A program made the position numbers and the translations under genes. Shown here one piece after another: positions 818-41,152 of a stretch of DNA of 64,000 nucleotides. The notes beneath the pieces were generated by a model. The model saw only the letters and a list, made by a program, of their open reading frames with translations, did no database searches and was not told where the DNA came from. Every line of letters begins with the position of its first letter. Positions within the stretch are counted from its first letter, which is position 1. This DNA comes from Piezodorus guildinii (lineage: Eukaryota; Arthropoda; Insecta; Hemiptera; Pentatomidae), in assembly GCA_023052935.1 (NCBI GenBank), contig CM041293.1, forward strand, positions 55,106,725-55,170,724, in the 5' to 3' direction.

Positions 818-982
818 GTTTCCATCCACCCACCATGCGCCCTGATGATGACCCACAAAGGGGGTCGAAACGTTGGCAAACAATAAATAGTTGAAACTAT
901 TTAGTTGTTTCGTTTAATGACCGCCACCCGGACTAATTCCTTCCAGTAATTCTCAACGGTCAACTAATTACATCCACAATGA
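818..982 (+). mobile_element. Family B short element with hammerhead-like core and 13-nt TSD
   Basis: A 165-bp insertion into family A, bounded by a perfect 13-nt duplication of CAAAAATATTTTT at 805-817 and 983-995; other family A copies have one such site here. Inside, CTGATGA (842-848) is followed by one T, a 5-bp stem GACCC/GGGTC, then GAAAC (867-871). The hammerhead ribozyme core is CUGANGA - stem II - GAAA. One extra base precedes the stem and I could not complete stems I and III, so catalysis is not shown. The distal end CTCAACGGTCAACTAATT recurs exactly, reversed, at 63571-63593. A long TSD without TIRs suggests retrotransposition; Penelope-like elements are known to carry hammerhead motifs. 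Confidence 0.75.
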
Positions 983-10300: not shown

Positions 10301-10536
10301 ATTTTTAGGTTCTTTTTAAATAATAAAATTATCCATGTCTTTCGCTCAACAATCCTTTCATTTCTTTTTTCCCTCCAACGTTTCAGCAATTTGCCATTTT
10401 CAAGGATTTTTCAATCTACCCGGTGTCTTGTCAGCTTGTTTTTATTTAATATAAAACGTTGGAGGAGAAAAATAAATAAAACGATTGTTAAGTGAAAAAT
10501 ATGAATCATTTTTTTATTTAAAAAGAACCTAAAAAT
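10301..10536. mobile_element. 236-bp foldback element
   Basis: Two imperfect inverted arms of about 85 bp (10301-10386 and 10453-10536) end in ATTTTTAGGTTCTTTTTAAA and its complement and surround a 66-nt centre. Near the centre the minus strand reads TTGAAAATGGCAAATTGCTG then AAACGTTGGAGG, related to the CTGANGA...GAAAC motif of family B. No reading frame. Confidence 0.8.
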
Positions 10537-21537: not shown

Positions 21538-22712
21538 CTAAAAACTGGTGCGCGCAACACACGATTTACACTTACCTCCATTATTTATATAACTTCAAGA
21601 ATTTTTAAACAATTTTATTAACGAAAATATATTGTTAAAGAATTAATTAAATTCGATTTAAATAGAAACATGTGTTCTATTAAATAATCTATAATAGAGG
21701 TACTCACTACGTTTGCTATAGCATGCTATTTGTGTTATTTTGCTAAATGGGTTTAGCACAAATAGCATGCTATAGCAAACGTGGTGAGTACCCCTTATAT
21801 TATTATATACGACAGTCAGTTTTTTTTATAGGCTTTTCTTTTCATCACTCTCAGTTAACTTTTACAATAGTATGTATGAGATAATATTTATTCTTAAATA
21901 TTTAGCATTCCAACGGTATGTTATACATGTATATTACTATTCTTTAGTTCAAAAGCAAGAATATTGCATTAAAAAATTATTTTTCTGTTTCCTCGTTTAG
22001 TTTTATATCGTATTCGTTTAACTTATATTTTACCAGTTTTTTATCAATGGTGACGAGATCGTTTGGTTATTTTTATAGAATCAACAAAATTAAAGGTAGT
22101 TAAGAGGAAAAATTTTGTAATATCGCCACTTAAGCCCTGTCAGACTATTTCAATCAGAATGAAACCAATATGATATTAAAGCCCGTTCAAATTTACATCG
22201 ACATAGAGAGTTAAATCCAAACCGTTACTGCCGAATTTATAAAAATCGTAAAAAGGGTCAAAATGCAACGTATTAATACCTCTTCATGTACGCTAATTTT
22301 GATGAAAAAGATTTTGTGACCTCTCGGACGTATATTTGTCTTAAATATGAAATTTCAGTATCATAGGACTTTTCGTTCGAGTTACCGCACACACAGACCT
22401 TTTTGCGGGAATGGTCGTTTTGACTCAGGATACTCTAAAACGTGTATTTCCGTTGAAAACTGGAATTCAAAAGTTTTTACGATCGTAATATTTTCCCTTA
22501 ATATTTATTTTATATATAGGTTAGTGAAAGTAAAAATGTAATATTGTTAGATTATTTGATCTCAGTAACATGTTTCCAATGATGGATAATAAACTTCGTA
22601 TTTAAATTAACTTATATTTTTTTGTTCAACAGTTTTTTAACCATTGGGTTATTTAATAGTTTTTTAATTGATTTTAACTCCCGAGGTTAGTGAAAGATGG
22701 TGTTGCAAGCAC
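21538..22712 (+). mobile_element. Family A, full-length copy with both inverted ends
   Basis: Left end AAACTGGTGCGCGCAACACA; right end (reverse complement) AATCTGGTGCTTGCAACACC. The inner side of the right arm (22541-22690) mirrors the left arm more loosely. Removing the 98-bp hairpin at 21697-21794 leaves about 1.08 kb. This copy and 32729-34310 show that family A has long terminal inverted repeats rather than one defined end. Confidence 0.8.
21697..21794. mobile_element. 98-bp near-perfect hairpin element inside family A
   Basis: Arms from GAGGTACTCACTACGTTTGC through TATAGCATGCTATTTGTG fold on a right arm ending GTGGTGAGTACCCC. An inner stem GCTAAA-TGGG-TTTAGC closes the loop. Family A copies elsewhere lack it, so it is an insertion. 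A 4-nt or shorter target duplication cannot be resolved in the A/T flanks. Confidence 0.85.
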
Positions 22713-23084: not shown

Positions 23085-23240
23085 GACAGATTGAGGAGAA
23101 AATTAGTCCGCGTGGCGGCCAGAGGAAGGAAAACAATGAAATAGTAATTGAATAAATATATATTTTGTTGCAACGTTTCGACCCATATTGTGGGCTATCT
23201 TCAGGGATCCTTTAGCAATGGCAGCTATAAAAATGAAAAT
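23085..23240 (-). mobile_element. Family B relative
   Basis: The minus strand reads CTGAAGA (23198-23204), then T, AGCCCA-CAATA-TGGGTC, then GAAAC (23175-23179). Further on, AATTAGTCCGCGTGGCGGCC (23101-23120) matches the reverse strand of 818-982 (AATTAGTCCGGGTGGCGGTC). The ends are not defined by a clear TSD. Confidence 0.6.
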
Positions 23241-24578: not shown

Positions 24579-25503
24579 TTGGGTTGTGTACCATGAAATG
24601 TCCGTTTTCAAGGTAAAGGATTTTTATTAAAAATACGATATGAAAACAAGATAATTTTATTCCAAGTATTTACCTTCTTTTTCTACACATTTTTCCCAAC
24701 GTGACACCAACTTTTTTTATCCCCGAACTGAAAAACTCTGAGCTTTGAAGTGAAACAAAATCTTAAAACGCAATTTTCACTTGATCATCATTTTCAAAAA
24801 GTTTTCCTCTGACGAAGTTGTCTAAATTCCTGAACAAGTGGTAATCTGTTGGAGACAAGTCGGGAGAATATGGTGGGTGCGGAAGAATTTCGTGGCCCGG
24901 TTCTTTCAATTTTTGCACGGTATGTTTTAAAACATGGGGTCTTGCTGCCGCTCTGTGAGATTATGAGGTACCGATGTATCGAGCTTTTTTACTTTACCAA
25001 TACACTTTAAATGTCTGGAAACGGTAGAAGCACTTGCATTTAGTTGTGCTGAGAGTCCTTTAACTGTTTGGTAGGGGTTTCCTTCTACTGTATGTTTGAG
25101 GACATCGTTGTCTATTACGAACGGAGGTCTTCCTCGGGGCAAGTTTTCCAAGTAGGTATCCCCAGCTGAAAACTTAACAAACCAACGGCGAATGGTCCGT
25201 TCATTAACACACCCTTCCCCAAACGCCTTGCAAACATTTCTAGTGGCCTCAGCAGCTGAATGGCCGAGTATAAACTCGTACAAAAATATTACTCGAAAAT
25301 TGCGTGTTTCTATGTTCATATTTGGAGGTATACTAAAAAGTGGGTAAATGATTGGGAAGCTAATGTTTATAATACAAAGGTAGAGGATTAGTAACTGTTT
25401 ACTTTAAATATGTAAACATTCGGAAGATAACAACAGAGCCCTGCAAAATCCTTTTTGTATTTCAGAAACTATAAAAACGGACATTTCATGTGAAACAACA
25501 CAA
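24579..25503 (-). mobile_element. Mariner transposon, internally deleted (925 bp)
   Basis: TA on both sides (24577-24578, 25504-25505), ends related to those of the copy at 11462-12280. The minus strand encodes the transposase N-terminal region to TERQQDPMF, then jumps to a C-terminal segment reading HTVQKLKEPGHEILPHPP, YSPDLSPTDYHLFRNLDNF, VRGKLFENDDQV and RFCFTSKLRVFQFGDKK. The third catalytic Asp (SPDL) is kept but the block with the first two is deleted, and the junction shifts frame. The two copies have different deletions, so they arose separately from a longer parent. Confidence 0.94.
24927..25319 (-). pseudogene. Mariner transposase N-terminal half
   Basis: 130 residues, start MNIETRNFRVIFLYEF. 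The first helix-turn-helix ends with NERTIRRWFVKFSAGDTYLE; then NLPRGRPPFVIDNDVLKHTV and the second helix-turn-helix PYQTVKGLSAQLNASASTVS plus RHLKCIGKVKKLD follow. PHNLTERQQ is the conserved stretch just before the catalytic core (usually WVPHxLTExQ; here the W is S). The frame then hits a stop right after the deletion junction. No catalytic triad, so only end-binding is conceivable. Confidence 0.9.
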
Positions 25504-27365: not shown

Positions 27366-28544
27366 AAACTAGGTATTAGGATGGAAATTCAGTCAAAGAA
27401 TGGTTTTTAACCAAAAAAAAAAAAAAAACCAAGCCCTTGATTAATTTTGATATTTAAATGCGTGTAGTGTTACAGGTAAACTAACTCCAATTTTTAATCT
27501 ATCTTCCGCTTTCCCTAATTTTCTCGACCAACAAGTATAATGGTAAACCATTTGTATAAATAACCACTTTTATTTAAAACATTAAAGAAAATACTTGTTT
27601 GAACTTGGTAGTCCCTTTTTTCCATCCTTTGTATTTTTCTTTTCTTTACTTTGAATACTCTGATCAATTATGTTACAATTAAATGTGAAGATTAAAAAAA
27701 AAAATCTTATAGTGGGTTGGTGTTTAGCTGTCAAGTAACAATCGAGTTTTAAAAAATTTATATTAAGTAGAGATACAATATGAAATCATGGCCATCATTA
27801 TTTCTAATTTACCAAATCATTATCCAAATTTCAATTGTAATAGTGAAGTTACATATCTATGACGTACAAAATGTCCATTCTTCCATAAGATGTGCAACAT
27901 TATAATATAAAATATTGTGAATACGTATGTATACATATCTCTATGTGATTTTATTTTCCCTTTAAATGGATTTAAATTTAAAGGGAAAAAACTATTTCAC
28001 AGAGAGATAAAGTTTATACTTAATTGTGTTCTATTGACTGCAACCTGAACCAACTTCTCCAAGAACATAGTGAATCTTTAATAGTTTATTCTGTTTTAAA
28101 TATGAAGGATTAGATAGTTCGTGTGGTGATCGAAATACGTTTCAAATTTTCACTACCGCGCGAATTATGTCATCTTACAGCGATATGTAGTTAATGTCTC
28201 CTCTCTTTACCTTCTCTTACATTTATACATTTCTAGTTGGCTACTATGTATCACGTAATTTTGCGAGAAATACATCTATTCTAACTATAATTCTAGAAAT
28301 GGTATTTTTGGAGAAGTGGGAATAAAGGAAAAAGAACCATGCACTGTACAAGTACACTTCAATCCGCGAAAAAATGAATCACTAACTTTTAATGTTGAAC
28401 CTGGCAGATGGTTCTAGAATGAAAAATCTTTGTACAGTCGTACTTCCGAGGGGACATAAATTGGTGGTCCAGAGCCTGGGCTAAGTCCCGTTAAATACGA
28501 GTATATCTATCCTAATTAACTTAGGAACTATTTAAGGCCTCCAC
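27366..28544. other. Unassigned DNA
   Basis: Contains a foldback at 27936-28008. At 28276-28420 an open stretch without a start reads NGIFGEVGIKEKEPCTVQ, then VHFNPRKNESLTFNVEPG; I do not recognise it. Confidence 0.4.
27936..28008. repeat. Foldback of about 30-nt arms
   Basis: TATCTCTATGTGATTTTATT then TTCCCTTTAAAT pairs with ATTTAAAGGGAAAAAACTAT then TTCACAGAGAGATA, with a few mismatches and a short loop. Confidence 0.7.
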
Positions 28545-33826: not shown

Positions 33827-34070
33827 CTGTGGCGGTCGTGAATAAGTGGTTAAGTCTTAATCTTTCATGTTGCAGGTGAGCGACTAAAGTTTTACGTAAT
33901 ACCAAAATAGAGTTATTGCTTACTGTTTTCTTTAAATATAAAATTTCTTCCATCAAGAAATTTTTTTGACCAATTTAACACGACTTAGAAGAAGGTCTGA
34001 GGGAGCTATACGTGAAGTTAACTCATTTTTTATATAACTCGAGTTTTCTAGTTTTTCACGACCGCCACAG
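33827..34070. mobile_element. 244-bp TIR element
   Basis: Perfect 16-bp terminal inverted repeats CTGTGGCGGTCGTGAA (33827-33842) and its complement (34055-34070). It sits in the ACTATATAT end of family A, apparently with an ATAT target duplication. CAGGTGAGCGACTAAAG inside resembles CAGGTGAGTGAACTAA near 23035. No transposase. Confidence 0.85.
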
Positions 34071-34103
34071 ATATTACATAATATGTAACTGAAAGTAAAT
34101 TTA

Positions 34104-34247
34104 TGAGAGAAATTCAGGGTGCAGTCAATATAACATGCAATTAAGCGTAAACTTAATTTATTGGTGGCGACGTTTCGGCCTAAATTATAGGCCTTCTTCA
34201 GGGTGATTGTGTGAGCTGAGAAACATGACAAGCTGAGAAATACTTAT
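34104..34247 (-). mobile_element. Family B short element with hammerhead-like core and 13-nt TSD
   Basis: 144 bp between perfect 13-nt copies of GAAAGTAAATTTA (34091-34103, 34248-34260). The minus strand has CTGAAGA (34195-34201), one A, a 6-bp perfect stem GGCCTA/TAGGCC with a 5-nt loop, and GAAAC (34172-34176) followed by GTCGCC. Same architecture and same TSD length as 818-982, although the sequences outside the core hardly align. The ends TGAGAGAAATTC and TACTTAT show no inverted repeat. Confidence 0.75.
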
Positions 34248-34310
34248 GAAAGTAAATTTAAAAAAAAAATTATTTTAACAATAATGTGTTGCGCGCACCA
34301 GATTTTTTAG

Positions 34311-35990: not shown

Positions 35991-36654
35991 ATAATCATTC
36001 AATTGATAAAGAATATTCCTTTATATCGGCTTATATAACACATTCGTCTTTCTTTCCAAATTATGTTGTGTATTTTTTACATTATTTACATATTTTAAAT
36101 TTTAAATGATATTTTTCTTTTTCTCATTATTTTATAATAAATAATTAGATGTTTCCTTAAACTTAAAAAAACAGTTAATTAAAAATGAAAACGAATCAAC
36201 CTTTCGGGGGCCTTCCCCATCATCAGGACTCACTAAAATACACTAACAAATTATCATTCAACATTATAAAATAACTTTTTTATATACTGATAAAAATCAT
36301 TATTACAATGTTACATAAAACTATATTTTCCTGAAAGTCATTTAAAAATTAAAAGAATATCCATTTTTAATTAAACTTTTGACATTAAAATTGTTTTTAT
36401 AAAAATTAACACTAAAGAAAATCACTAACAATTCATTTCAATTTTAAATGTCTTTCAGGTAAATTTAATTTTATATAATATTGTTATATGTTTTCTAATA
36501 ATGATTTTAATCTATATCATTATTATAAAGCTGAAGAGATTATTTGTTTGAACGCTCTAATCTCAGAAACTTCTGGGTTGAATTGAAAAATTATTTTTGT
36601 ATTGGATATTCCTTGGAATTCCTTGGTATTGGAAGGCTTTAGGCTATACCACGC
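35991..36654. other. Unassigned AT-rich DNA with a family B-like motif
   Basis: Only the CTGATGA motif at 36190-36245 stands out. Confidence 0.45.
36190..36245 (-). repeat. Hammerhead-like core motif
   Basis: Minus strand: CTGATGA (36220-36226), T, GGGG-AAGG-CCCCC stem, then GAAAGG (36200-36205). Same order as family B, but GAAAG instead of GAAAC. Confidence 0.6.
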
Positions 36655-40520: not shown

Positions 40521-41152
40521 ATCATTGTCGTAATTGTTCTTTTGTTTGAATATTTGTTCGATAAATATTAGGCCGTTTTACAAAAGAAATTCTTGGATAT
40601 ATATATATTTTTTTTTTAAAACAATTTATTTAATTCAGTCATCGCAACGTTTCAGCCTCTAGGGCTATTCTCAAGCTTCTGTAATCAATTAAAGTTTCAT
40701 TGCATTTATACATTTTCAACAATTTAATTACAACACATAATAAATTATTTTTAATAATTATGTCACCTACTATGCATATCCATCTTAATTATCATTTCAT
40801 TTCACCGCTTTTCAGCAGCGTCGTCATAATTTTTTAAAAATATTATTTTTCAAAAAAACCTGTACTCAAAAATATCATATTATTTTTCATCATCAATTGA
40901 AAAAGGGATCTATTTATTCAAAAAAGAAAAGAAACATTTTTATCAACTTAGTCAACAGTTTTCGGCCGTCTTATAGGTGTTCTCCTGCGCAACTAAACTT
41001 GGGGTGGGGATGCCAAAGGATTTATATATTTACTCTGTCAATAGCACTTGCATAAAAGGTGTTCAGGTTGTCAACGTCTGTTTGCTGGTTAAAAAAAATA
41101 TATCCAAGAATTTCTTTTGTATTTATCGATATACTAATCCTAATATTTATCG
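40521..41152. mobile_element. 632-bp insertion with inverted ends and two hammerhead-like motifs
   Basis: Near its ends are inverted blocks: TATTTGTTCGATAAATATTA (about 40551) against TAATATTTATCGAACAAATA (41141-41160), and ACAAAAGAAATTCTTGGATA (40580) against its complement (41099-41119). Inside, minus-strand motifs at 40630-40690 (CTTGAGA, AGCC/GGCT stem, GAAAC) and 40950-40990 (CAGGAGA, ACACCTATAAG, CGGCCGAAAAC) resemble family B. The spacer frame 40977-41186 is not recognised. Confidence 0.7.

What the first reader, a model, noticed from the sequence alone, without database searches (positions are those of the whole stretch)
34091..34260. Second family B insertion, also with a 13-nt TSD
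A 144-bp insertion in a different family A copy has the same CTGANGA - N - stem - GAAAC order and the same 13-nt TSD length, while the rest of its sequence is almost unrelated to 818-982. Conservation of the core with loss of everything else suggests that the RNA structure matters for mobility.
Basis: partly seen in the sequence, partly recalled or inferred. Interest (0 to 1): 0.8.

Follow-up and report, generated by a model that had tools for sequence, protein, structure and literature searches.

The report
Penelope retrotransposon fragment with hammerhead motif
This 144-base insertion is a small leftover of a known class of jumping gene (Penelope-like elements) that carries a shortened hammerhead ribozyme; it is one of many thousands of similar copies in this probably insect genome, so the kind of thing is already known.

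Summary
A 144-bp insertion (34104-34247) lies between 13-nt target-site duplications (34091-34103, 34248-34260; maximal repeat 14 nt) in a multi-copy repeat. On the minus strand it carries CTGAAGA - stem II (6 bp) - GAAAC. It is best read as a short copy of a Penelope-like element (PLE) end repeat ("pLTR") with the minimal, helix-III-less type I hammerhead already described for PLEs. Its motif has 11,688 places in the host genome (up to 3 mismatches); a pattern catching mainly the other family (818-982) has 11,394, and that family is physically joined to a reverse transcriptase/GIY-YIG protein. Relatives show PLE hallmarks: head-to-head inverted pairs, an optional 3' tail, 13-nt TSDs. A covariance model finds the motif 400-830 bp downstream of the GIY-YIG domain in 19 of 20 loci. 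Between families, stems I and II and the core C3-G8 pair covary. In this copy stem I is broken, so it is predicted inactive. That RNA structure is conserved is supported; that it matters for mobility is not shown. New: abundant non-autonomous families, some in 172- and 296-bp tandem arrays resembling retrozymes. Known kind, modest interest.

The parts
34104..34247 (-). Inserted element: short copy of a PLE pLTR of the 'GGCCTA/TAGGCC' family (fam2); its 3' end is at 34104
   Evidence: 22 BLAST matches in L069-L079: 20 are 85.7-95.6% identical over 78-123 bp, the two in L074 are 70 and 78%; 3' end ...CTCTCA shared
34091..34103 (.). Target-site duplication, first copy (GAAAGTAAATTTA)
   Evidence: maximal repeat 14 nt from 34090
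34248..34260 (.). Target-site duplication, second copy
34169..34201 (-). Minimal hammerhead motif: CTGAAGA (34195-34201), stem II GGCCTA/TAGGCC (34188-34193 / 34177-34182), GAAA (34173-34176), then C-GT-C; putative cleavage after C34169
   Evidence: sequence; CM R1 54.4 bits, but this copy was in the model's training set
34202..34204 (-). Stem I 5' strand (ACC)
   Evidence: pairs with 34166-34168 (GCC) by 1 of 3 bp; 13 of 17 fam2 copies pair by the first 2 or 3, 3 more have a U-G in the middle, 1 lacks the first
34166..34168 (-). Stem I 3' strand (GCC)
   Evidence: GGC in 18 of 21 fam2 copies printed; the search pattern that led to them favoured GG
818..982 (+). Insertion of the other PLE family (fam1, GACCC/GGGTC), hammerhead motif 842-871, TSD 805-817 / 983-995
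23166..23210 (-). Third, older hammerhead-bearing PLE remnant, 70% identical to fam1 over 137 bp
28007..28049 (-). 43-bp fragment 84% similar to the 3' part of the insert, without the hammerhead

Best explanation
The insertion is a short, non-autonomous copy of the end repeat (pLTR) of a Penelope-like retroelement carrying the minimal type I hammerhead of that group (stems I and II, core, a self-complementary ACGU where helix III would be). Shown: class of motif, number of places, PLE-type anatomy of relatives, and 13-nt TSDs. Inferred: a PLE reverse transcriptase with a GIY-YIG endonuclease acting in trans made a staggered cut at an A+T-rich site, copied the pLTR-bearing RNA and stopped about 45 nt upstream of the motif, giving a short solo copy. 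Also inferred: in transcripts holding two tandem pLTRs the hammerheads pair through ACGU as a dimer and cut at GUH to unit length. This copy, single and with a broken stem I, is most likely an inert remnant.
For: Motif and TSD. 11,688 places within 3 mismatches of the fam2 motif, reversed control 0; 11,394 exact places of a pattern that catches mainly fam1 (93 of the 100 listed begin CTGANGATGAC), control 0. Fam1 motif downstream of ORFs with RVT_1 and GIY-YIG matches in L018 (all four matches under the Pfam cut-offs); of 82 proteins similar to one of these ORFs, 80 carry RVT_1, PF26215 or GIY-YIG, and 14 of the 15 with a species name are from insects, one from a coral. CM R1 hits on the same strand, 400-830 bp downstream of the GIY-YIG domain, in 19 of 20 loci at E 0.02 or better; two (L042, L043) were in the training set. 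The same 19 of 20 match the L018 PLE protein. Head-to-head pairs, one partner with and one without a tail, in 6 of 6 fam2 pairs L070-L072 and L075-L077 (by eye). TSD: 8 of 17 inverted pairs have an exact repeat of 13-15 nt against 1 of 272 mismatched flank pairings. Covariation: 25 doubly changed cells against 7.8 shuffled and 1-6 when slid. PLE minimal hammerheads without helix III are described in PMC6155905 and PMC7761336; inverted pLTRs, palindromes and tails in PMC3846280; passages read.
Against: No protein-coding PLE carrying the fam2 motif was found among the 20 GIY-YIG loci cut out (of 103 matches), so the direct physical link is shown for fam1 and other PLE families, not for the finding's own. 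Rfam's hammerhead models match neither this region nor 818-982 even at E 10. Stem I of this copy has 1 of 3 bp. 9 of the 17 inverted pairs lack an exact 13-nt repeat: two lie inside tandem arrays, three reach 12 of 13, a level that 11 of 272 control pairings also reach. In one search two measures do not stand out from shuffles (pairs with a double change, 58 of 500 as high; pair types, 280 of 500). The weakest of the 19 CM hits (L048, 19.0 bits) scores below an unexplained window hit (10371, 20 bits).
Confidence: 0.92

Rival explanations
1. It is a member of the metazoan non-LTR retrozymes: a small circular-RNA retrotransposon with a full type I hammerhead, mobilised in trans.
For: Fam2 also occurs as tandem units of about 172 bp with one hammerhead each (L069) and fam1 as 296-bp units (L010), sizes inside the published 150-450 bp range (PMC7229834, passages); the short copies are non-coding and mobile.
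Against: No helix III; pLTR hallmarks (tail, inverted pairs); fam1 is joined to a PLE ORF. The window copy is single, not tandem.
Confidence: 0.2
2. Two unrelated elements that share the core only by chance.
For: The two inserts have no nucleotide similarity detectable by BLAST.
Against: 3 matches against 0.05 expected in the window; thousands of places of each with reversed controls 0; other families with other stem II sequences around the same core; covariation.
Confidence: 0.01
3. The motif is only a coding or DNA-level signal of PLEs (for example at the start codon or a nuclease recognition site), not a ribozyme.
For: Some PLE copies with open frames over 900 aa carry a U4A change in the core (L035/L049, L050); L046 has G at the cleavage position; a PLE hammerhead mutated in vitro did not change insertion (PMC11167929).
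Against: Double changes in stems I and II and at C3-G8 preserve pairing (C-G 12, U-A 5, other 0 of 17 chosen sites); the 100 places listed have C (92), T (5) or A (3), never G, at the cleavage position that the pattern left free, though they are related copies on one contig.
Confidence: 0.1

Closest known systems
Minimal type I hammerheads of Penelope-like elements (Cervera and de la Pena 2014; Luense, Weinberg and Breaker 2017; both seen only as citations and as described in reviews PMC6155905 and PMC7761336, passages)
   Same: Core, stems I and II, no helix III, tandem or dimeric arrangement, location in pLTRs, thousands of dispersed copies in non-coding DNA
   Different: Two further sequence families, in a genome whose PLE protein has its nearest named match in a stink bug (57%); this copy has a broken stem I. 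Whether these families are in print I could not check in those two papers
PLE of Anolis (PAc), PMC11167929 (passages read)
   Same: Hammerhead with stems I and II at the pLTR-ORF junction; A+T-rich target
   Different: Autonomous vertebrate element; here the copy is short and non-autonomous
Penelope elements of Adineta vaga, PMC3846280 (passages read)
   Same: pLTR about 200 bp, head-to-head inverted pLTRs, palindromic junction, optional tail, solo pLTRs
   Different: TSDs given in the passages read are 8-10 bp, here mostly 13; the word hammerhead does not occur in that paper
Metazoan non-LTR retrozymes, PMC7229834 (abstract and passages read)
   Same: Non-coding, tandem units of a few hundred bp with hammerheads, TSDs longer than 4 bp
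   Different: Those have canonical type I hammerheads; here helix III is absent

Membership tests
Penelope-like elements | RT plus GIY-YIG endonuclease in complete copies | tested here: inconclusive
   Met for the sister family fam1 (L018, Pfam scores under the cut-offs; protein search); no complete copy of the finding's own family was found among the 20 loci cut out
Penelope-like elements | Inverted pLTRs with palindromic junction | tested here: met
   By eye: fam2 pairs such as L070 and L072, fam1 pairs L003, L005, L007. The window copy itself is single
Penelope-like elements | Optional 3' tail on one pLTR | tested here: met
   6 of 6 fam2 pairs read (L070-L072, L075-L077) have one copy with and one without the tail; the array L069 and the cut-off pair L073 were not counted; the window copy has the short end
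Penelope-like elements | Target-site duplication | tested here: met
   13 nt at the finding; 8 of 17 inverted pairs exact 13-15 nt, control 1 of 272
Minimal PLE hammerhead | Core CUGANGA ... GAAA and an N-U-H site | tested here: met
Minimal PLE hammerhead | Stem II | tested here: met
   6 bp in this copy, covarying between families
Minimal PLE hammerhead | Stem I | tested here: not met
   1 of 3 bp in this copy; 13 of 17 fam2 relatives form the first 2 or 3. The family meets it, this copy does not
Minimal PLE hammerhead | Self-cleavage, as dimer | not testable with these tools
   Needs RNA
Rfam hammerhead families | Match to a hammerhead model | tested here: not met
Non-LTR retrozyme | Canonical type I hammerhead with helix III | tested here: not met
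   GAAA is followed directly by C-GUH with no room for helix III
Non-LTR retrozyme | Tandem unit repeats of about 150-450 bp | tested here: inconclusive
   Present for relatives L069 (about 172 bp) and L010 (296 bp); absent at the finding
Non-LTR retrozyme | Circular RNA expression | not testable with these tools
   No RNA data

The most novel reading that the evidence does not exclude
The two families, each with around 11,000 motif places, are largely protein-less passengers of PLEs that spread through unit-length, possibly circular RNA cut out by paired minimal hammerheads; the 172-bp and 296-bp tandem arrays would be products of reverse transcription around such circles. That would make them PLE-type retrozymes, bridging two groups that the reviews read here treat as separate.
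Probability: 0.28. Interest if true: 0.5.

Novelty: new member of a known kind. Interest (0 to 1): 0.24.

Why it matters
A genome with two abundant minimal-hammerhead families, several PLE families with different core variants (normal, U3-A8, U4A) and tandem arrays is a good natural system in which to ask what the PLE ribozyme does, a role that a review calls unknown (PMC7761336, passages). The finding itself is an ordinary copy and probably dead.

Tried and rejected
Rfam scan of the window, and of the two elements alone with lax thresholds: no hammerhead match. Chance origin: rejected. A LINE or DNA transposon as carrier: rejected for fam1 by L018; for fam2 no carrier was found. L045 was considered as the complete fam2 element because a fam2-like motif lies 1.4 kb upstream of a GIY-YIG ORF; dropped because that endonuclease is 94% identical to the L068 family and has a different, weaker motif downstream (L045:2168-2209). 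tblastn of six PLE proteins against the window: no hit at E 0.01. RNA fold of the insert: MFE -27.4 kcal/mol, z -2.05, 7 of 200 shuffles as low; its stem II forms but the fold shown is not the hammerhead fold. Literature searches for a 13-bp Penelope TSD (3 papers, listing only) and for stink bug Penelope elements (none) gave nothing useful; one search was seen as a listing except PMC3088659, of which I read passages.

Rows left out. Scripts that count sites or pairs dropped L004, L006 and L008 as overlapping cuts of L003, L005 and L007, or dropped duplicates by sequence. The pair count used L001-L028 and L069-L079, not L029-L068. A1 has 14 sites and A2 17, chosen by me from the sites found. 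A1 rows not carried into A2: L028_620, L015_1066 (stem I unpaired), L068_4670, L010_862 and L065_8802; the last two break the ACGU (kept in 12 of 14 rows of A1, 17 of 17 of A2). Most rows came from patterns that required GAAAC or GAAACGT, so conservation of those letters is partly by construction; stem letters were required only in patterns for fam1 and fam2.

Full report
What is there. On the minus strand the sequence at 34172-34201 reads CTGAAGA-A-GGCCTA-TAATT-TAGGCC-GAAAC, followed by GTC. The loose pattern occurs 7 times in the window against 0.48 expected; a tighter pattern with parts of stem II and up to 3 mismatches occurs 3 times against 0.05 expected. The insertion lies between a direct repeat of 14 nt at most. 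The flanking repeat (family A) has many other partial copies in the window. Of eight whose continuation I printed, six show the same GTGAAAGTA-like end without the insert; the other two diverge before it. The insert has no BLAST similarity to 818-982.

The genome. The window lies in contig C2 of a 1.2-Gb assembly of 434 contigs. The nearest named protein match of its PLE is from Halyomorpha halys, 57% identical, so an insect, perhaps hemipteran, host is likely but not proven. A pattern catching mainly fam1 has 5,740 + 5,654 exact places (93 of the 100 listed begin CTGANGATGAC, the others are variants or other families), and the fam2 pattern has 5,816 + 5,872 places with up to 3 mismatches. The reversed controls gave 0 both times. 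Only 100 places are listed in each case, all on contig C1.

Link to Penelope-like elements. In L018 the fam1 motif follows, on each side of a head-to-head pair, an ORF with matches to RVT_1 and GIY-YIG. The four scores lie under the Pfam cut-offs (27.4 and 22.2 against 29.6; 21.4 and 21.9 against 22.6). Of 82 proteins similar to one of these ORFs at E 1e-10 or better, 80 carry RVT_1, PF26215 or GIY-YIG; 15 have a species name, 14 of insects and one of a coral. Of 103 GIY-YIG matches reported, the best 20 were cut out as loci. A covariance model of the motif found it on the same strand, 400-830 bp downstream of the endonuclease, in 19 of 20 at E 0.02 or better; L042 and L043 were in the training set, and several loci are members of one family or neighbours, so they are not independent. 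The one miss, L032, is also the only one of the 20 that does not match the PLE protein. For the finding's own family no coding copy was found.

Anatomy of relatives. The window copy has 22 BLAST matches in L069-L079, 20 of them 85.7-95.6% identical over 78-123 bp and two (L074) at 70 and 78%. Fam2 copies form head-to-head pairs; in 6 of 6 pairs read by eye (L070-L072, L075-L077) one partner carries an extra tail and the other does not. This is the organisation described for Penelope in Adineta vaga (PMC3846280, passages). Among 17 inverted pairs of both families, 8 have an exact flanking repeat: 13 nt in L003, L007, L018, L075 and L076, 14 in L077, 15 in L005 and L012. One of 272 pairings of flanks from different loci reaches 13. 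Two of the 17 (L010, L069) lie inside arrays, where no duplication is expected at the flanks examined; L011, L071 and L072 reach 12 of 13, as do 11 of the 272 controls; the remaining four (L017, L019, L026, L070) do not. Tandem arrays occur: about 172 bp per unit in L069 and 296 bp in L010.

On 14 chosen sites, stems I and II give 88.3% paired cells against 67.9% after shuffling, and 25 doubly changed cells against 7.8 shuffled and 1-6 when partners are slid. The number of pairs with a double change (7 against 5.1; 58 of 500 shuffles as high) and of pair types (12 against 11.8) do not stand out in that set. On 17 sites including core variants there are 43 doubly changed cells against 13.6 shuffled and 5-14 when slid, 10 of 10 pairs with a double change (4 of 500 shuffles as high), and the tertiary core pair C3-G8 is C-G in 12, U-A in 5 and unpaired in 0. 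Natural U3-A8 covariation in hammerheads was reported in PMC3088659 (passage read). Three of the five U-A rows are one PLE family and the other two are weak window hits, so at most three independent events are seen.

This copy. Stem II is intact with 6 bp, but stem I has one pair: ACC against GCC. Of 17 fam2 relatives, 13 form the first two or three pairs, 3 have a U-G in the middle and 1 lacks the first pair. GAAA is followed by C-GUC with no helix III. PLE hammerheads of this form are known, and may act as dimers according to a review and a cited title (PMC6155905; PMC7761336; the original papers are not held). The self-complementary ACGU that a dimer would use is present in 12 of 14 rows of A1 and 17 of 17 of A2, though for many rows the search pattern required it. 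I therefore expect this copy to be inactive.

How it works, step by step. Shown: the motif, its families, PLE-type arrangement, 13-nt duplications. Inferred: cutting by a GIY-YIG endonuclease, copying of the RNA by the PLE reverse transcriptase with an early stop, and cleavage of tandem transcripts by dimeric hammerheads. The PAc study reports that hammerhead mutants did not affect insertion in vitro and that the ribozyme cut only with protein present (PMC11167929, passages), so a role in mobility is open.

Verdict. A real, correctly described feature; a new member of a known kind; low to moderate interest. The most novel reading is that the tandem families are PLE-type retrozymes.

Noticed in passing
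L029, L031, L033, L041, L046, L048, L054 (read); equal or like model scores suggest L030, L034, L037, L044, L045, L047: A PLE family whose hammerhead core reads UUGAAAA (C3 to U and G8 to A, keeping the pair) with stems I and II mostly intact; L046 has G at the cleavage position.
   Followed up: partly
L035, L049, L050 (read); equal scores in L036, L038, L039, L040: PLE copies, some with open frames over 900 aa, whose core has U4 changed to A, expected to weaken the ribozyme.
   Followed up: partly
window 10371-10409 (-), 40640-40680 (-), 36192-36232 (-): Three weaker covariance-model hits, E-values 0.01, 0.19 and 0.0023; the first two have the U3-A8 type core. A genome count for the second stayed unanswered.
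   Followed up: partly
L010:1240-4560: Head-to-head array of 296-bp units, each with a hammerhead and, by eye, an open start ATGATGAAAAGAACACGG.
   Followed up: partly
L018, L045, L065, L075, L079: The motif is preceded by a T-rich stretch ending in TAG, like a 3' splice site, in copies of both fam1 and fam2 (by eye).
   Followed up: no
window 33827-34073: Separate inverted-repeat element (CTGTGGCGGTCGTG...) inserted in the same family A copy; its ends share GACCGCCAC with the fam1 3' end (by eye).
   Followed up: no
window 21694-21798: Near-perfect palindrome matching Rfam MIR7127 on both strands (64.3 and 60.6 bits, gathering 100), probably a MITE.
   Followed up: no
window 24927-25403 (-): Open frame that looks like a mariner-type transposase start (recalled, by eye, no search).
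   Followed up: no
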